Origin: Actinomycetota bacterium
Lineage (GTDB): Bacteria > Actinomycetota > Humimicrobiia > Humimicrobiales > Humimicrobiaceae
DNA length: 5,078 nt
Direction of reading: 5' to 3'
Assembly: GCA_023475715.1 (NCBI GenBank)
Contig: JAMCVO010000473.1
Coordinates: forward strand, 1-5,078
Shown: positions 1 through 5,078 of the stretch, piece after piece
How positions within the stretch are numbered: position 1 is the first letter of the stretch
Layout of the letters: every line of letters begins with the position of its first letter
Made by a program: the position numbers and the translations under genes
Notes under the pieces: generated by a model
Databases searched by the model: none
What the model was told of the DNA's origin: nothing
Seen by the model: only the letters and a program-made list of their open reading frames with translations

Positions 1-27
1 CCGCGTATCCAGGGCTTATAATTTATT
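1..27 (+). repeat. 27-base exact direct repeat, copy 1 (probable chimeric contig end)
   Basis: These bases are identical, on the same strand and in the same codon phase, to bases 1270-1296 inside gpmI. Identity stops at base 28 (T here, G at 1297). The encoded residues RVSRAYNL belong to the gpmI substrate-binding domain and do not resemble what precedes the QPR motif in phosphoglucose/phosphomannose isomerases. A 27-base match by chance in 5 kb is effectively impossible. The best reading is an assembly or template-switch chimera at the contig end; a genuine micro-duplication is less likely. Confidence 0.8.
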
Positions 28-646
28 TAATTTCGATTCTCAACCGAGAGAAGCCTTTCCCTATCTGTTTTTATTGTTATTAAGCATTTTTAACAAACTA
101 GGTTATTTCAATATCAGCAATAAAGATATAGAGAGAACAGCTGAGTTCCTGGGACAATATAGAGATAAGTTTAAAACGGAGACTCCCTTCGCTATAAATT
201 TAGCCAAGGCTCTTGCTTCTAGAATCAGTGGAAAGGTTCCTTTGATCTATGCGGGAGGATATTTAAAATCAGTGGCAAAGCGATTTAAATCTCAATTTAA
301 TGAAAATGCTAAGACCTTTAGTTTTGCCGAAGCCTTTCCTGAGTTAAATCACAATGTTATTAGTGGTTTTGAAAAACCTAAAGCAACAAATTTTGTTATT
401 ATACTTGAATCTAACTATGATTTTGAGAGGATTATCAAACAGGAAAATATTACTGCTGTAATTCTACGTAAATTTAACATTGAACTTGAACGAGTTAAGT
501 TTGTGCCCTGTGATAGTCCGTTGTCAGAAATCCTCTTGATGGTCATGCTGGGTGATTTTGTTTCTTGCTATCTCGGCATTTTAAATGGCGTCAATTTATC
601 AGATATTAAAAATGTTATTTTTCTAAAAAACGAATTGGAGAGATAA
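2..646 (+). CDS. Bifunctional phosphoglucose/phosphomannose isomerase, C-terminal part (5' partial)
   Basis: Likely interconverts glucose-6-phosphate or mannose-6-phosphate with fructose-6-phosphate in the cytosol. The frame is open from base 2 to TAA at 644-646, so the TTG at 74 is an internal Leu codon and not a start; the N-terminal SIS domain is missing off the left edge. Visible hallmarks are SQPREAFPYL (bases 38-67), which matches the family's QPR-aal-y segment; a second SIS-like domain beginning GKVPLIYAGG; then NENAK and FPELNHN. The Glu of NENAK (302-304) and the His of LNHN (350-352) are exactly 16 residues apart, as are catalytic Glu203 and His219 of the Pyrobaculum enzyme. A Lys near the C-terminus (626-628, FLKNELER) fits the family's third catalytic residue, Lys298. 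Bases 1-27 duplicate part of gpmI and are probably not native, so trustworthy coding sequence starts near base 28. An 18-base gap separates it from gpmI, suggesting cotranscription. A single-function isomerase of the same SIS family cannot be excluded. Confidence 0.87.
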   Translation, partial: RVSRAYNLFNFDSQPREAFPYLFLLLLSIFNKLGYFNISNKDIERTAEFLGQYRDKFKTETPFAINLAKALASRISGKVPLIYAGGYLKSVAKRFKSQFNENAKTFSFAEAFPELNHNVISGFEKPKATNFVIILESNYDFERIIKQENITAVILRKFNIELERVKFVPCDSPLSEILLMVMLGDFVSCYLGILNGVNLSDIKNVIFLKNELER

Positions 647-664: not shown

Positions 665-2257
665 TTGCTGAATATATCTAAAAAAACGAAAAAACCTTTT
701 GCATTGATAATTCTTGATGGTTGGGGAATTGCTCCCGCTTGGGGCGGAAATGCCATCACAAAAGCTAAAACTAAAACTTTTGATTTGCTTTGGAAGAATT
801 ATCCATCAACCTCACTATTGGCCTCTGGTCAAGCAGTCGGATTACCACTAAATTCTCCCGGCAATTCAGAAGCTGGTCATTTGAATCTCGGCGCTGGAAA
901 AGTTGTTCACCAAGATCTAACTTTAATTGACCAAAGAATCGATGATCAGTCGTTTTATAGTAACCCAATTCTTGTAAATGGTATTAAACATGCAGAGAAT
1001 CATCATTCCAATATTCACATAATTGGTCTCTTATCAAAAACAGGCACTCACAGTCACATCAAACATCTTTATGCTCTTCTTAATTTGATGAAGAAAAACA
1101 ACTTCAATAGAGTGTACATAGATCTGTTCTCCGATGGTAGAGACTCTGATCCATTTTCTGGAATAGAAATGATATCCGAAGTTGAGAATGAAATTAAAAA
1201 AATAGGCGTTGGTAAGATTAATTCTATATCAGGGCGATTCTTTGCAATGGATAGAGATAATAGATGGGGCCGCGTATCCAGGGCTTATAATTTATTGGTA
1301 AAAGGTGAAGGAAATATTTACGAATCTCCTAAAAGCGCTTTTTCCTCAGCTTATACTTTAGGACAGACCGATGAGTTTATAGAGCCAAGATTGGTAGGAA
1401 ATAAGATTTCCAATACTGAAACGATATCAAACAATGACACTGTCATACTTTTTAACTTTAGGAACGATCGGACAAAAGAACTAGCGGAAGCATTTCTTGC
1501 TGATAAATTACCAGAATTTCCTGATCGCCAAAAATTGAATAATTTATACTTTGCTTCATTCGCAGTTTATGATGATAATCCGATTTCAAAACAGGTATTT
1601 TCTCCTGAAATAATTCATGAGCCAATTGCTAAGGTCTGGGCCGACCAGGGATTAAGACAATTTCACATCGCAGAGACAGAGAAATTCCCTCACGTCACAT
1701 ATTTTATAAACGGGGGTATAGAAAAACCTTTTTGGGGTGAAAGTCGACTTATGATACCATCACCCAGAAATGTGAAGACTTATGATTATAAACCGGAGAT
1801 GAGTGCTAAGGAGGTAACTGAATCTCTAATTCTTGCGATTAATAAAAACTTGAATGATGCGATAATCTTAAACTACGCTAACGCTGATATGGTCGCCCAC
1901 TCTGGTAATTTAGAGGCGACTGTTATGGCAGCAGAATGTGTTGATGCTTGTTTAAATAAGGCTTTGACAAAAATCACTAGCCTAGGAGGAACTGCTATAA
2001 TTTGCGGCGATCATGGTAATGCTGAGCAGATGGTAAATCCGAGAACTGGACAACCAGATACAGAACATACGACCAATCCAGTCCCTTTTATAATAGTTAG
2101 CGAAGATGAAAAGATAAAAAAGTTTAAATTAAGATCCGACGGAATTTTGTCATCAGTGGCACCAACAATTCTTGAATTAATGAATATACCAAAGCCTCAG
2201 ACTATGATAAACCAGTCTTTAATAATCAAAGAGATAAACACCAATGAAAGTTCTTAA
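665..2257 (+). CDS. gpmI: 2,3-bisphosphoglycerate-independent phosphoglycerate mutase
   Basis: Interconverts 3-phosphoglycerate and 2-phosphoglycerate in lower glycolysis through a phosphoserine intermediate, using two divalent metals (usually Mn). The 530 residues are close to the usual length of about 510-515. The phosphatase-like domain is split (about 1-80 and 315-530) around the phosphotransferase domain. Motifs: LDGWG with metal ligand Asp18; GNSEAGH with nucleophile Ser68; NADMVAHSGN with Asp408 and His412; GDHGNAE with Asp449 and His450; and His468 before TTNPVPF. Expected substrate ligands are present: His129 (GTHSH), Arg159/Asp160 (SDGRD), Arg191 and Arg197 (SGRFFAMDR), Arg266/Arg269 (FRNDR) and Lys340. 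All correspond, with a constant 5-6 residue shift, to the Geobacillus stearothermophilus enzyme, except Lys340, which is shifted by about 4. It should be active. Small oddities are a TTG start and the LLSKTGTHSH segment, where the family usually has LLSDGGVHSH. Its last 14 bases overlap the next gene, a paralogue, suggesting translational coupling. Confidence 0.98.
   Translation: MLNISKKTKKPFALIILDGWGIAPAWGGNAITKAKTKTFDLLWKNYPSTSLLASGQAVGLPLNSPGNSEAGHLNLGAGKVVHQDLTLIDQRIDDQSFYSNPILVNGIKHAENHHSNIHIIGLLSKTGTHSHIKHLYALLNLMKKNNFNRVYIDLFSDGRDSDPFSGIEMISEVENEIKKIGVGKINSISGRFFAMDRDNRWGRVSRAYNLLVKGEGNIYESPKSAFSSAYTLGQTDEFIEPRLVGNKISNTETISNNDTVILFNFRNDRTKELAEAFLADKLPEFPDRQKLNNLYFASFAVYDDNPISKQVFSPEIIHEPIAKVWADQGLRQFHIAETEKFPHVTYFINGGIEKPFWGESRLMIPSPRNVKTYDYKPEMSAKEVTESLILAINKNLNDAIILNYANADMVAHSGNLEATVMAAECVDACLNKALTKITSLGGTAIICGDHGNAEQMVNPRTGQPDTEHTTNPVPFIIVSEDEKIKKFKLRSDGILSSVAPTILELMNIPKPQTMINQSLIIKEINTNESS
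1270..1296 (+). repeat. 27-base exact direct repeat, copy 2 (native copy inside gpmI)
   Basis: This copy encodes gpmI residues 203 to about 211 (RVSRAYNL plus part of the next codon), directly after the DRDNRW segment. A basic patch followed by AY is normal for the family at this point, so this copy is native and the one at bases 1-27 is the displaced one. Confidence 0.85.
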
Positions 2258-3812
2258 TGATCCATTAGTTTTATTGTTAGTGGAAGGGTTAGGGATGTCT
2301 TCCAGTTGGAACGGAAATGCAGTTCTAACTGGCAACCCCAAGAATTTTTTTGACTTATGGGCCAAATATCCTCATACTTTGCTCAATCCATCTCTTGGAC
2401 TCAATAAAGAAGCTGTTTTCGAGAACAACGAATCTATTTTTTCTACTTTATCTACTGGAGTTAACGCTCTCTATAATAGTGCTTTTTTAACCGAACAAAT
2501 TAACGAAAACCTAGTTGAGAAAAATATTCTAAAAGCCTTTGATAGACTAAACCAACAAAAAAGCAACCTTCATTTTGTAGGCAATCTATCAAGCTCGGCC
2601 GGAAAATATGGTGATATCAACCATTTACTTGCTCTGCTTAAATTGGCGAAGAAAAGGAGCTTATACAACGTATATATTCATTTAATTGTTGACGACAGTG
2701 AATTTTCCGACTTAAGAGAAATATTATCTTTATTGAATGCTCTTACAATGGAGATAAATAAAATAGGGGTCGGTGAAATAGCCTCTATCTGTGGCCAAAA
2801 GTTTATATCCGATGATGCAAAAAGTGCTGATTTCATCTTAGCCTATAAGGCAATGGTTGAAGGTAAGGGTTATGTCGGTCTTAGCGCAGAACAAGCCTTC
2901 AATCTTTTTAAAGGAAATTCTTCTATCCCCGATCATTTAACTCCAAGAGTGATCTCTTTTCGAGGAAAGCCAATTGGCAAATTTAGTAACTTTGATGTTG
3001 TCATATTTTTTAATCATAACAACGACTCTATTAGTCGGTTTATTCTTTCTATTAGCCAAGATCGTTCTCAATATAGAGGTATTAACCTGCCGAAATTTAT
3101 TGAAACATATGTATTTTTTAAATTGTTTCCTCAACAAATAGGAAACTTGAAGGTTATTTATCCCACCGATCCTCAGAATACTCTTACATCTCTGTTACTA
3201 GGGGCTGGCATAAAGCAGTCTTATATTTCTGATTATTCGAGAATTGATCATATAAAATCATACTTCCAAGGATCGGTGAAAAATACTGATTTAGTAGAAA
3301 ATATTTTTATTTCAGAAGGTCAATTGGACAATCACGCAGAAATATTTAACCGAATTTTATCCTTATTAAAGAAAGAGCTCGATGTAGGAAGTAAATTCAT
3401 TTTGATTGACATCCCACTTATTTATCGTTTTGCTATTAAGAAATCATTTAACGAGACTGTTTCCGTTATTAAAAAGTTTGATGACTTCCTGCCCCAATTG
3501 ATGAAAACAGTCTTCGATAAAAAAGGTACAATTATTCTTACATCAAATCATGGATGTGTAGAACAGCTAGTTACTAAAAGTCACTATGAAAGAATTAATA
3601 ATAAAACTTTAAACCCTCTGCCTTTTTTATATTTATCCTCCGATATTGCACCAAAATCGAATATTCAAAGTGGAGGAAACCGATTAATTTATGATATCCT
3701 GGATAAGAAGCGCCATAATTTAATTGATATCGCCCCCACGATACTCGAGTTATTGGGCATACCAAGACCAGCCAATATGGAAGGACAAAGTTTTATTAGC
3801 GAATTAATATAA
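2244..3812 (+). CDS. Catalytically degenerate phosphoglycerate mutase (iPGM) paralogue, putative pseudoenzyme
   Basis: A 522-residue protein that aligns end to end with the adjacent GpmI. Shared landmarks are EGLG for DGWG, NLSSSAG...INHLLALLKLAKK for LLSKTGTHSHIKHLYALL, EINKIGVGEIASICG, FFNHNNDS for FNFRNDRT, SNHGCVEQLV for GDHGNAEQMV, NPLPF, and a well-kept C-terminus (DIAPTILELLGIPRP). The active site is stripped. By hand alignment, Asp18 becomes Glu14, Asp408 Tyr394, His412 Ile398, Asp449 Asn435 and His468 Lys454; only His436 stays. The GNSEAGH motif is absent, although Ser64 falls near the nucleophile column. The substrate ligands Arg159, Arg191, Arg197, Arg266 and Arg269 become Ser, Gln, Asp, Asn and Ser, and His129 is lost. 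Mutase activity is therefore unlikely. The gene has an ATG start, a weak AGAGA upstream, a 14-base overlap with gpmI and no frameshift or internal stop, so it does not look like a decaying pseudogene. Its role is unknown; a structural or regulatory partner of GpmI, or a new ligand-binding function, are inferences only. Confidence 0.93.
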   Translation: MKVLNDPLVLLLVEGLGMSSSWNGNAVLTGNPKNFFDLWAKYPHTLLNPSLGLNKEAVFENNESIFSTLSTGVNALYNSAFLTEQINENLVEKNILKAFDRLNQQKSNLHFVGNLSSSAGKYGDINHLLALLKLAKKRSLYNVYIHLIVDDSEFSDLREILSLLNALTMEINKIGVGEIASICGQKFISDDAKSADFILAYKAMVEGKGYVGLSAEQAFNLFKGNSSIPDHLTPRVISFRGKPIGKFSNFDVVIFFNHNNDSISRFILSISQDRSQYRGINLPKFIETYVFFKLFPQQIGNLKVIYPTDPQNTLTSLLLGAGIKQSYISDYSRIDHIKSYFQGSVKNTDLVENIFISEGQLDNHAEIFNRILSLLKKELDVGSKFILIDIPLIYRFAIKKSFNETVSVIKKFDDFLPQLMKTVFDKKGTIILTSNHGCVEQLVTKSHYERINNKTLNPLPFLYLSSDIAPKSNIQSGGNRLIYDILDKKRHNLIDIAPTILELLGIPRPANMEGQSFISELI

Positions 3813-3821: not shown

Positions 3822-4394
3822 ATGCAGTCAAAAATAGAGATCTCAGCTCGACATATTCATCTCACAAAGGAAGATTGTATGACCTTGCTAGGAAAGGAGA
3901 AACTTACTTTTTTAAAAAAACTTAGCCAAGACCAAGATTTTGCTGCCAAAGAAACTCTAAAAATAGAGGGGACCAAAAATAGTTTTTCTAGCGTGAGAAT
4001 AATTGGTCCCTTTAGGAATTATTCTCAAGTTGAAATATCTCAGTCCGACGCGGTTTTTTTAGGAATAGATGCTCCCTTAAAAATATCGGGCGACTTGCCG
4101 GGGGCTAGAATAAAAGTTACGGGGCCAATAGGTGAAATCGAAAAAGATATCGCAATAGTAGCAAAACGCCATCTTCACCTTTCTCCAAAAGAAGCCGAAG
4201 AATTGACTCTTACAAATAACGCTAATGTGAGCGTAAAAATTGGAGGTGAGCGTGCTTTAATCTTTGATATGATTACCGTGAGAATAAAGGAGAACTTTAG
4301 TAAATCGGTTCATCTTGATACTGATGAAGCAAATGCAGCTGGATTAAAATCCTGCGGGGAGGGAGACTTAATTATTAATAGGGCGATAGACTAA
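3822..4394 (+). CDS. pduL: PduL-type phosphate acyltransferase (phosphotransacetylase)
   Basis: Exchanges CoA and phosphate between acetyl-CoA (or propanoyl-CoA) and the acyl phosphate; with acetate kinase directly downstream, acetyl phosphate formation is the likely job. The 190 residues hold two PduL repeats. The first has ARHIHLT (His11, His13), VRIIGPFR (Arg65, phosphate-binding candidate) and SQVEIS (Glu71). The second has KRHLHLS (His117, His119) and VHLDTDEANA (His164). These match the two-zinc site known from the Rhodopseudomonas palustris enzyme (three His/Glu ligands and three His ligands). The first zinc motif starts only about ten residues from the N-terminus, so there is no encapsulation peptide of the kind used to target PduL to bacterial microcompartments, and no shell gene is in view; a cytosolic enzyme is inferred. 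It is unrelated in sequence to Pta. Its TAA stop directly abuts the ATG of ackA. Confidence 0.96.
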   Translation: MQSKIEISARHIHLTKEDCMTLLGKEKLTFLKKLSQDQDFAAKETLKIEGTKNSFSSVRIIGPFRNYSQVEISQSDAVFLGIDAPLKISGDLPGARIKVTGPIGEIEKDIAIVAKRHLHLSPKEAEELTLTNNANVSVKIGGERALIFDMITVRIKENFSKSVHLDTDEANAAGLKSCGEGDLIINRAID

Positions 4395-5078
4395 ATGATA
4401 TTATCAATAAATCCCGGTTCGAGCTCATTAAAATACAAGCTTTTCGATGATTCAGTCGATGAACTTATTTTAGGTGACGATATTGTGATTGATGGCACAG
4501 AAATTAAAAGTCATACCGATGCTAGCAATAAAATGCTTGAGAATATAGGCTCAAGAATTAATTTCATTAAAATGATTGGCATTCGTGTTGTTCATGGCGG
4601 TCCTAAGTATAGCGAACCAATTATTATTGATCCAGACGTCATCTCTGAAATCGAAAAATATTCTCAATTTGCCCCAATACATAATCCCTTTGCTTTGGAA
4701 ATAATAAAACTGCTTGATAAAAAAAGTTTAACCGGTGTTTTATTGTTTGCAGTTTTCGACACCGGTTACTTTAATTTGATATCTGAAGAAAATCACTCTT
4801 ATGCACTTCCTGAGATTGAAGGCGATATTAAGATCCGACGTTACGGTTTTCACGGCATTTCACATAGATATGCTCAGAAAATTGCAGACAAGGAAAATCA
4901 AAAAAAGGTAATCTCTATTCATCTTGGTGCCGGTTGTAGTGTAACTGCTATTAACTGCGGCAAAGTTGTTAAAACATCAATGGGTATGACTCCAATGGAA
5001 GGCCTGATAATGCAGACTAGAAGCGGAGATTTGGATCCTGGACTTTTAATATATCTAGTCGAAAAGTTTGGAACAAAA
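4395..5078 (+). CDS. ackA: Acetate kinase, N-terminal 228 residues (3' partial)
   Basis: Transfers phosphate from acetyl phosphate to ADP, giving acetate and ATP, the energy-yielding end of the PduL route. The ATG follows the pduL TAA with no gap; an AGGG lies 11 bases upstream. The frame is open to the window edge; the full protein is usually about 400 residues. Motifs in order: INPGSSSLK (Asn6), RVVHGG (Arg64), APIHNP (His96), VFDTGYF (Asp122), RRYGFHGISH (His153), HLGAG (His176), TSMGMTPMEGL and TRSGDLDPGL (Arg209). They correspond to Asn7, Arg91, His123, Asp148, His180, His208 and Arg241 of the Methanosarcina thermophila enzyme. Oddities: Ala179 replaces the usual Asn of HLGNG, Lys193 replaces Asp of DTSMG, Gln207 replaces Gly of GTRSGD, and the segment between the phosphate loop and RVVHGG is about 27 residues shorter than in M. 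thermophila. A related acyl kinase (propionate or butyrate) is possible, but pduL linkage favours acetate. Confidence 0.94.
   Translation, partial: MILSINPGSSSLKYKLFDDSVDELILGDDIVIDGTEIKSHTDASNKMLENIGSRINFIKMIGIRVVHGGPKYSEPIIIDPDVISEIEKYSQFAPIHNPFALEIIKLLDKKSLTGVLLFAVFDTGYFNLISEENHSYALPEIEGDIKIRRYGFHGISHRYAQKIADKENQKKVISIHLGAGCSVTAINCGKVVKTSMGMTPMEGLIMQTRSGDLDPGLLIYLVEKFGTK
4729..4768. repeat. 10-base perfect inverted repeat inside ackA
   Basis: TAACCGGTGT (4729-4738) is the exact reverse complement of ACACCGGTTA (4759-4768), with a 20-base loop. It is fully inside the ackA coding sequence, over the codons for LTGV and DTGY of the conserved FDT segment, so coding constraint may explain it. 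A T-rich tract follows the stem on the minus strand, but no minus-strand gene is there to terminate. Confidence 0.4.

What the first reader, a model, noticed from the sequence alone, without database searches (positions are those of the whole stretch)
2244..3812. Intact tandem paralogue of phosphoglycerate mutase with its active site erased
Next to a GpmI with every catalytic residue lies a full-length homologue that keeps the fold landmarks but has replaced almost all metal ligands (Asp to Glu, Asp to Tyr, His to Ile, Asp to Asn, His to Lys) and all the substrate arginines that can be aligned. Five hundred intact codons, a conventional start and overlap with gpmI argue for a maintained protein. 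Known iPGMs are monomers that need no partner, so a coupled pseudoenzyme would be unusual: possibly a regulator of GpmI, a metabolite sensor or a scaffold. The substitutions are read directly from the sequence; the function is speculation.
Basis: partly seen in the sequence, partly recalled or inferred. Interest (0 to 1): 0.72.

Follow-up and report, generated by a model that had tools for sequence, protein, structure and literature searches.

The report
Maintained dead twin of phosphoglycerate mutase
Next to a normal sugar-burning enzyme gene sits an intact gene for a look-alike protein that has lost the parts needed for catalysis; relatives show that such dead copies are kept by evolution, most likely for a job other than the original reaction.

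The parts
2..646 (+). 3' part of a bifunctional phosphoglucose/phosphomannose isomerase gene (bact-PGI_C), cut by the contig start
   Evidence: PF10432 123.8 bits; NCBIfam PRK08674 models matched below their cut-offs, the gene being partial
665..2257 (+). gpmI, ordinary iPGM with all 15 key residues; TTG start with GGAGG just upstream
2244..3812 (+). degenerate iPGM paralogue (522 aa), 14 of 15 key residues replaced, overlaps gpmI by 14 nt
2283..2285 (+). codon 14, Glu in place of metal ligand Asp12 (Glu in 5 of 5 members)
3018..3020 (+). codon 259, Asn in place of substrate Arg261 (Asn in 5 of 5 members; motif FFNHNN)
3240..3242 (+). codon 333, Arg in place of active-site Lys336 (Arg in 5 of 5 members)
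3603..3605 (+). codon 454, Lys in place of metal ligand His462 (Lys in 4, Arg in 1 of 5 members)
3642..3725 (+). long loop with a short helix before the last conserved segment (28 residues here, 27-29 in the 5 members, most often 16 in the other aligned iPGMs, range 10-28)
   Evidence: model helix 479-487 next to a stretch of lower confidence
3822..4394 (+). PduL-type phosphate acyltransferase gene, 9 nt after the degenerate gene
   Evidence: PF06130 198.8 bits
4395..5078 (+). acetate kinase gene, 5' part, cut by the contig end
   Evidence: PF00871 209.8 bits over profile 2-256 of 392

Best explanation
The gene encodes a member of a small, maintained family of catalytically dead iPGM paralogues in uncultured, probably Patescibacteria, genomes. 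Shown by sequence: the two-domain iPGM fold is kept; the serine nucleophile, both metal sites and the phosphoglycerate-binding residues are gone; the family has its own fixed residues. Inferred: the former metal site is now a metal-free cluster (E14, E/D60 and D330 against R333 and K/R454) that holds the protein in one conformation or binds a different ligand; the protein is co-translated with GpmI and works by protein contact, as a non-catalytic partner or regulator of GpmI or of the PGI-GpmI-PduL-AckA module, in the manner of trypanosome prozymes. I put 'no mutase activity and maintained' at about 0.87 and the partner role on top of it at 0.42.
For: 14 of 15 key residues lost against 15 of 15 in 257 of 276 aligned sequences. 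Four more degenerate proteins in one clade (SH-aLRT 99, 100). Loss concentrated at the active site: 9 of 60 cells kept at 12 catalytic columns against 119 of 225 at 45 other highly conserved columns (cells are not independent). Fixed replacements at sites conserved in 267-270 of 270 other iPGMs. Fold kept. Overlap with gpmI in a run of same-strand genes. A GpmI on a contig of the same length and source as the degenerate protein in 2 of 4 other cases, P0002/P0195 at 20,083 bp and P0005/P0203 at 259,527 bp. About twice the rate of the GpmI partners (2.13, 2.42, 1.45 against 0.93, 1.01, 0.80 changes per site): faster, yet constrained. Independent precedent that eroded iPGMs are kept: Acidobacteriota.
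Against: No direct evidence of interaction. No GpmI residue is specific to the three pair-bearing lineages (0 columns; random triples average 0.46). No partner seen for P0003 and P0004 among the 120 GpmI hits listed. Rare: of the 42 listed GpmI relatives whose longest contig is 15 kb or more, 2 share a contig length with a degenerate protein. In the Acidobacteriota series each of 15 genomes has a single iPGM, eroded in 11, so an eroded iPGM does not need an active iPGM. The fixed E/D/R/N set could be a new active site.
Confidence: 0.42

Rival explanations
1. A second, non-mutase function that the ordinary iPGM fold already carries (a moonlighting role, for example binding another protein) has been handed to the dead copy; GpmI itself is not its target.
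For: Eroded iPGMs are also kept in Acidobacteriota, there after another mutase (dPGM) is present and without any active iPGM: 15 of 18 dPGM-bearing genomes with an iPGM have an eroded one, 1 of 33 without dPGM, median dN/dS 0.163 over 23 pairs.
Against: The two series differ: Acidobacteriota keep R185, R261 and H445 in 21 of 21, the window clade loses R185 and R261 in 5 of 5. 4 of the 22 dPGM-bearing genomes show no iPGM at all, so the role can be lost.
Confidence: 0.22
2. Neofunctionalised enzyme: mutase chemistry was lost but a remodelled, metal-independent site acts on another substrate.
For: Fixed, charge-keeping replacements at former catalytic sites (D12E, E333D, K336R) in 5 of 5 members. 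P0023, next to the clade in two trees, keeps the metal site but not the substrate residues, so a change of substrate may have come first.
Against: No nucleophile is shared (position 62 is N, I, S, G, E); D403 and H407 are scattered (Y, T, D, D, S and I, K, N, N, N).
Confidence: 0.17
3. Stand-alone metabolite sensor that does not touch GpmI.
For: Polar invariant residues remain in the former cleft; the operon runs from glycolysis to acetate. In Acidobacteriota the kept R185, R261, H123 and D154 would fit a phosphoglycerate sensor.
Against: In the window clade H123 and the substrate arginines are lost, so phosphoglycerate is an unlikely ligand there.
Confidence: 0.12
4. Decaying duplicate on its way to being lost.
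For: Most of the listed long-contig GpmI relatives show no such protein; it evolves about twice as fast as GpmI. In Acidobacteriota erosion is graded and 4 of 22 dPGM-bearing genomes show no iPGM, as slow decay would give.
Against: Five proteins at 35-52% identity share a clade and fixed replacements. The frame would not stay open under neutral drift. Codon preferences correlate with those of gpmI plus pduL at 0.82, between the isomerase (0.73) and acetate kinase (0.85) fragments.
Confidence: 0.06
5. Assembly artefact or frame error joining pieces.
For: The contig start (1-27) repeats 1270-1296, so this assembly has at least one doubtful end.
Against: The ORF aligns end to end with four other proteins and with iPGM structures.
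Confidence: 0.01

Closest known systems
[quoted passage not shown]
   Different: Nucleophile, both metal sites and phosphoglycerate ligands replaced; TIGR01307 147 bits against cut-off 331; long C-terminal loop
Eroded iPGMs of Acidobacteriota (21 examined here)
   Same: Intact full-length iPGM homologues with 6-14 of 15 key residues, kept under selection
   Different: Separate clade; sole iPGM of the genome, dPGM present in most; keep R185, R261 and H445 in 21 of 21
Prozyme-type catalytically dead paralogues (trypanosomatid AdoMetDC prozyme, deoxyhypusine synthase)
   Same: Intact dead paralogue kept beside an active enzyme (PMC5201418, abstract and outline; PMC3663545, start of abstract in a listing)
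   Different: Complex formation and activation are shown there, untested here; here the pair is bacterial and overlapping
PirC-iPGAM regulation in cyanobacteria
   Same: Protein control of an iPGM; the iPGAM loop concerned is joined by a strand to the H462 equivalent (PMC12077085, passages), about where the degenerate family carries its long loop
   Different: As far as I recall PirC is a small unrelated protein; the loop there sits on the active enzyme
P0023, iPGM homologue with metal site but no substrate site
   Same: Next to the degenerate clade in two trees (SH-aLRT 99 and 98, on a long branch); shares E333D and a 27-residue loop
   Different: Keeps D12, S62, K336, D403, H407, D444, H445, H462

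Membership tests
iPGM (functional GpmI, TIGR01307) | Score above the equivalog cut-off (330.65 bits) | tested here: not met
   147.3 bits; the other four degenerate members 132-190.5
iPGM (functional GpmI, TIGR01307) | Serine nucleophile and two metal sites (D12, S62, D403, H407, D444, H445, H462; roles recalled) | tested here: not met
   E, N, Y, I, N, H, K in the window protein
iPGM (functional GpmI, TIGR01307) | Substrate-side residues H123, R153, D154, R185, R191, R261, R264, K336 (roles recalled) | tested here: not met
   Y, S, E, Q, A, N, S, R
iPGM structural family (PF06415 + PF01676) | Both domains, full-length fold | tested here: met
Pseudoenzyme paralogue of GpmI | Homology with loss of the catalytic set, the protein being kept across lineages | tested here: met
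   Five members, one clade
Pseudoenzyme paralogue of GpmI | Purifying selection at DNA level | not testable with these tools
   DNA of only one member at hand; done only for the separate Acidobacteriota series
Pseudoenzyme paralogue of GpmI | No catalytic activity | not testable with these tools
   Needs purified protein
Prozyme-type regulator | Physical complex with the active paralogue and a change in its activity | not testable with these tools
   No complex prediction on hand; no biochemistry
Prozyme-type regulator | Recurrent genomic pairing with the active paralogue | tested here: inconclusive
   Window, plus 2 of 4 others with a GpmI on a contig of the same length and source; order unread

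The most novel reading that the evidence does not exclude
The iPGM fold carries a second, non-mutase function, laid bare at least twice: in probable Patescibacteria by duplication, where the dead copy sits beside GpmI and lost first the substrate side (as in P0023) and then the metal site, and in Acidobacteriota where dPGM is present and the eroded iPGM is kept. In the Patescibacteria form the dead copy has become a dedicated subunit that controls GpmI, a bacterial glycolytic prozyme.
Probability: 0.28. Interest if true: 0.8.

Novelty: new variant of a known kind. Interest (0 to 1): 0.64.

Why it matters
Second iPGM copies are rare in bacteria: a survey found duplicate iPGMs in only 4 of 702 genomes, and PGM paralogues mainly in larger genomes (PMC2964296, passages). 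A kept dead copy in what are probably small genomes is unexpected. Eroded iPGMs kept in Acidobacteriota with dN/dS like that of intact ones suggest that an iPGM can be worth keeping after its chemistry is gone, which is directly testable. Annotation also matters: some of these genes can be named phosphoglycerate mutase by homology although they cannot be expected to act as one.

Tried and rejected
Decay and assembly artefact: considered and ranked low (see rivals). Mobile origin: tblastn of the degenerate protein gave matches in 38 plasmid and 20 phage records, all under 60% identity; I saw only the five best of each listing, at 24.0-26.6%. Viral contigs gave no relative. More members of the window's clade: a profile search with the five found no sixth among the 120 hits listed, the score falling from 799 to 298 bits. 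The genome-contig scan needed an exact match to one of two short motifs and gave 16 loci at 22-28% identity; the tree puts its Acidobacteriota loci apart from the window clade and L015 (Clostridia) among ordinary iPGMs. Terminators: 6 terminator-like sites against 3.1 (sd 2.0) in shuffles, none in the gaps between genes; promoter-like sites 14 against 17.9, so no sign of a break in the run of genes, but the scan is weak.

Corrected on the way: a first residue table used the wrong column for H462, put right; a first repeat check was off by one base, redone; a first neutral simulation let some draws leave the base unchanged, redone.

Unresolved: a tree holding the degenerate clade with the Patescibacteria-type GpmIs is not rejected (p-AU 0.718) and is slightly more likely than the free tree, so where the duplication arose is open. 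P0023's place rests on a long branch (2.19); in the tree without it the smallest well-supported set around the degenerate clade joins it with 12 ordinary iPGMs. aPGM is no alternative mutase in the 16 genomes: 0 of 16 over the cut-off.

Papers: looked for a described dead or inactive iPGM paralogue (0, 3, 2 and 8 papers listed) and for the operon in Patescibacteria/CPR; no title or abstract start describes one, but I read few of the papers. [quoted passage not shown] Passages of PMC7143001 and PMC12839542 gave nothing used.
Full report
What is in the window. Five same-strand genes follow each other closely: the end of a phosphoglucose/phosphomannose isomerase (2-646), gpmI (665-2257), the ORF in question (2244-3812), a PduL-type phosphate acyltransferase (3822-4394) and the start of acetate kinase (4395-5078). 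The gaps are 18, -14, 9 and 0 nt. No whole genome is held for the window. Among the nearest relatives of its GpmI that carry an organism name most are Patescibacteria or Berkelbacteria MAGs and one is labelled Actinobacteria, so a Patescibacteria source is likely but not proven.

The observation. The ORF encodes 522 aa, 26% identical to the neighbouring GpmI (E 7e-34). Residues are numbered through the alignment to 1ejj. Their roles are recalled from the iPGM structure literature; only H462 as a manganese ligand was seen in print here (PMC12077085, passages). In a 276-sequence alignment the window GpmI has 15 of 15 key residues; the second protein has 1 of 15: E, N, Y, S, E, Q, A, N, S, R, Y, I, N, H, K for D12, S62, H123, R153, D154, R185, R191, R261, R264, K336, D403, H407, D444, H445, H462. 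Of the 276, 257 have 15, 6 have 14, 3 have 13, 3 have 12, P0140 has 11, P0023 has 9 and five have 1-3. The rows are the listed best hits of three searches plus the window GpmI, not a random sample.

A family, not a lone wreck. Four database proteins (P0002-P0005, 517-530 aa) are 35-39% identical to the window protein and also degenerate. P0004 begins about 13 residues late, perhaps at a contig end; the DNA of these four was not seen. The five form one clade (SH-aLRT 99, 100). Ninety columns are invariant in the five: 54 agree with a residue held by at least half of the other iPGMs, 25 differ from the commonest residue, and 11 agree with a commonest residue that is under half. Against 270 other iPGMs, all five carry E at D12 (D in 269), D at E333 (E in 270), R at K336 (K in 269) and N at R261 (R in 270); H462 (H in 267) is K in four and R in one; the glycine two residues before S62 (G in 270) is E or D in all five. 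Twelve catalytic columns kept 9 of 60 cells, 45 other highly conserved columns 119 of 225 (Fisher p 7e-8; the cells share ancestry, so p is only a guide; R153, D154 and R264 were not among the columns counted). The frame would not survive neutral drift: 1 of 1000 simulated copies stayed open at 0.1 changes per site and 0 of 1000 at 0.25, while members differ by 1.45-2.42 amino-acid changes per site in the three comparisons measured.

Pairing. P0195 (GpmI) and P0002 (degenerate) come from one source and a contig of 20,083 bp; P0203 and P0005 likewise from 259,527 bp. P0003 (17,979 bp) and P0004 (3,715 bp) have no such match among the 120 GpmI hits listed, of 8000 found. P0002 and P0005 are sisters among the degenerate proteins, and their GpmIs fall in one group of five, as inheritance of the pair would predict. 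Of the 120 GpmI hits listed, 42 have a longest contig of 15 kb or more and 2 of these match a degenerate protein, so the pair is rare. P0156, 95% identical to the window GpmI, lies on a contig of 3,369 bp, and I cannot tell whether its strain has the pair. No member of this clade turned up in the scan of one genome for each of 84,980 species, which needed an exact match to one of two short motifs.

A second, separate series. Reading the 16 loci of that scan showed that 11 of 16 are eroded iPGMs (6-14 of 15 residues) and 5 intact. The 15 loci titled Acidobacteriota, Acidobacteria or Pyrinomonadaceae form one group with P0097 and P0105 and three other proteins, apart from the window clade (100). 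Each of the 16 genomes has one iPGM match; 13 of 16 have a dPGM over the TIGR01258 cut-off and 0 of 16 an aPGM. In a sample of 60 genomes of the family of the L001 genome (the family's name is not told by the tool) 52 have an iPGM and 22 a dPGM over the cut-off (for G015 it is a partial match of 87 bits). Of the 22 with dPGM, 15 have an eroded iPGM, 3 an intact one and 4 none. Of the 38 without, 30 have an intact one, 2 a truncated one without replacements, 1 (G065) an eroded one, 1 (G053) a fragment that I did not examine, and 4 none. Eroded against intact by dPGM is 15:3 against 1:32 (Fisher p 3.8e-9; not corrected for kinship, and MAGs may be incomplete). Outside that sample G006 (L005) is a further eroded case without dPGM over the cut-off. 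The eroded genes are open and 503-535 codons long. Counted by Nei-Gojobori, 20 eroded genes with at most 12 of 15 residues give 23 of 190 pairs with dS under 1.5, median dN/dS 0.163; 33 intact genes give 167 of 528 pairs, median 0.196. L006 and L065, both 8 of 15 with mostly shared replacements, give dN 0.122, dS 0.88, ratio 0.138. Pairs share branches, dS is high, and part of the path may predate the erosion, so this shows selection on the protein but not its exact strength. Over 21 eroded genes R185, R261 and H445 are kept in 21, H123 and D154 in 19; H407 and H462 are kept in 5, and in 0 of the 13 with at most 10 residues. This looks like substrate binding kept and catalysis lost, the reverse of P0023 and unlike the window clade.

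How it likely works. Shown for the window clade: the residues for nucleophilic attack, metal binding and phosphoglycerate binding are gone, the fold is kept, a set of replacement residues is fixed. Inferred: E14, E/D60 and D330 with R333 and K/R454 form a metal-free, salt-bridged site in place of the two manganese ions; the protein is co-translated with GpmI through the 14-nt overlap and acts by contact. Precedents for the manner are trypanosomatid prozymes (PMC5201418, abstract and outline) and, for protein control of an iPGM, PirC (PMC12077085, passages). Against GpmI as the target: no GpmI residue is specific to the three pair-bearing lineages (0 columns, random triples 0.46), and eroded iPGMs in Acidobacteriota persist as the only iPGM.

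P0023. This 522-aa protein keeps D12, S62, D154, K336, D403, H407, D444, H445 and H462 but has lost H123, R153, R185, R191, R261 and R264. It shares E333D and a 27-residue loop with the degenerate clade and sits next to it in two trees (SH-aLRT 99 and 98) on a branch of 2.1-2.2. It may record an order of loss, substrate side first. It is one sequence, and long-branch attraction is not excluded.

Novelty. Dead paralogues are a known kind. A maintained dead iPGM was not described in the titles or abstract starts returned; I read few of those papers. I rate it a new variant of a known kind.

Noticed in passing
L001-L006, L010, L011, L013, L014, L016, L063-L072: Eroded but open iPGM genes in Acidobacteriota (6-14 of 15 key residues), associated with the presence of dPGM and under purifying selection.
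   Followed up: partly
L001:7640-11524 and L016:9322-11527: A GNAT acetyltransferase gene lies directly upstream of the eroded iPGM in both loci looked at; in L001 an enolase gene and a 174-aa ORF without Pfam match precede it.
   Followed up: partly
window 1-27 and 1270-1296: The first 27 bases of the contig are an exact copy of 27 bases inside gpmI, read in the same frame; the contig start is probably an assembly junction, so the first ~9 residues of the isomerase ORF may not be real.
   Followed up: partly
protein P0023: iPGM homologue that keeps all metal ligands and the serine but has lost the substrate arginines and H123: a possible intermediate or a different phosphatase.
   Followed up: partly
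protein P0140, named as a Lachnospiraceae iPGM: Keeps the substrate arginines, D403, H407, H445 and H462 but has N, A, T, T for D12, S62, K336, D444.
   Followed up: no
proteins P0040, P0064, P0082: E or K for R191, Q for R264 and P for H462; they group with L013 and so belong to the Acidobacteriota series.
   Followed up: partly
window 3822-5078: A PduL-type acyltransferase precedes ackA; it has no long N-terminal extension of the kind I recall for microcompartment targeting.
   Followed up: no
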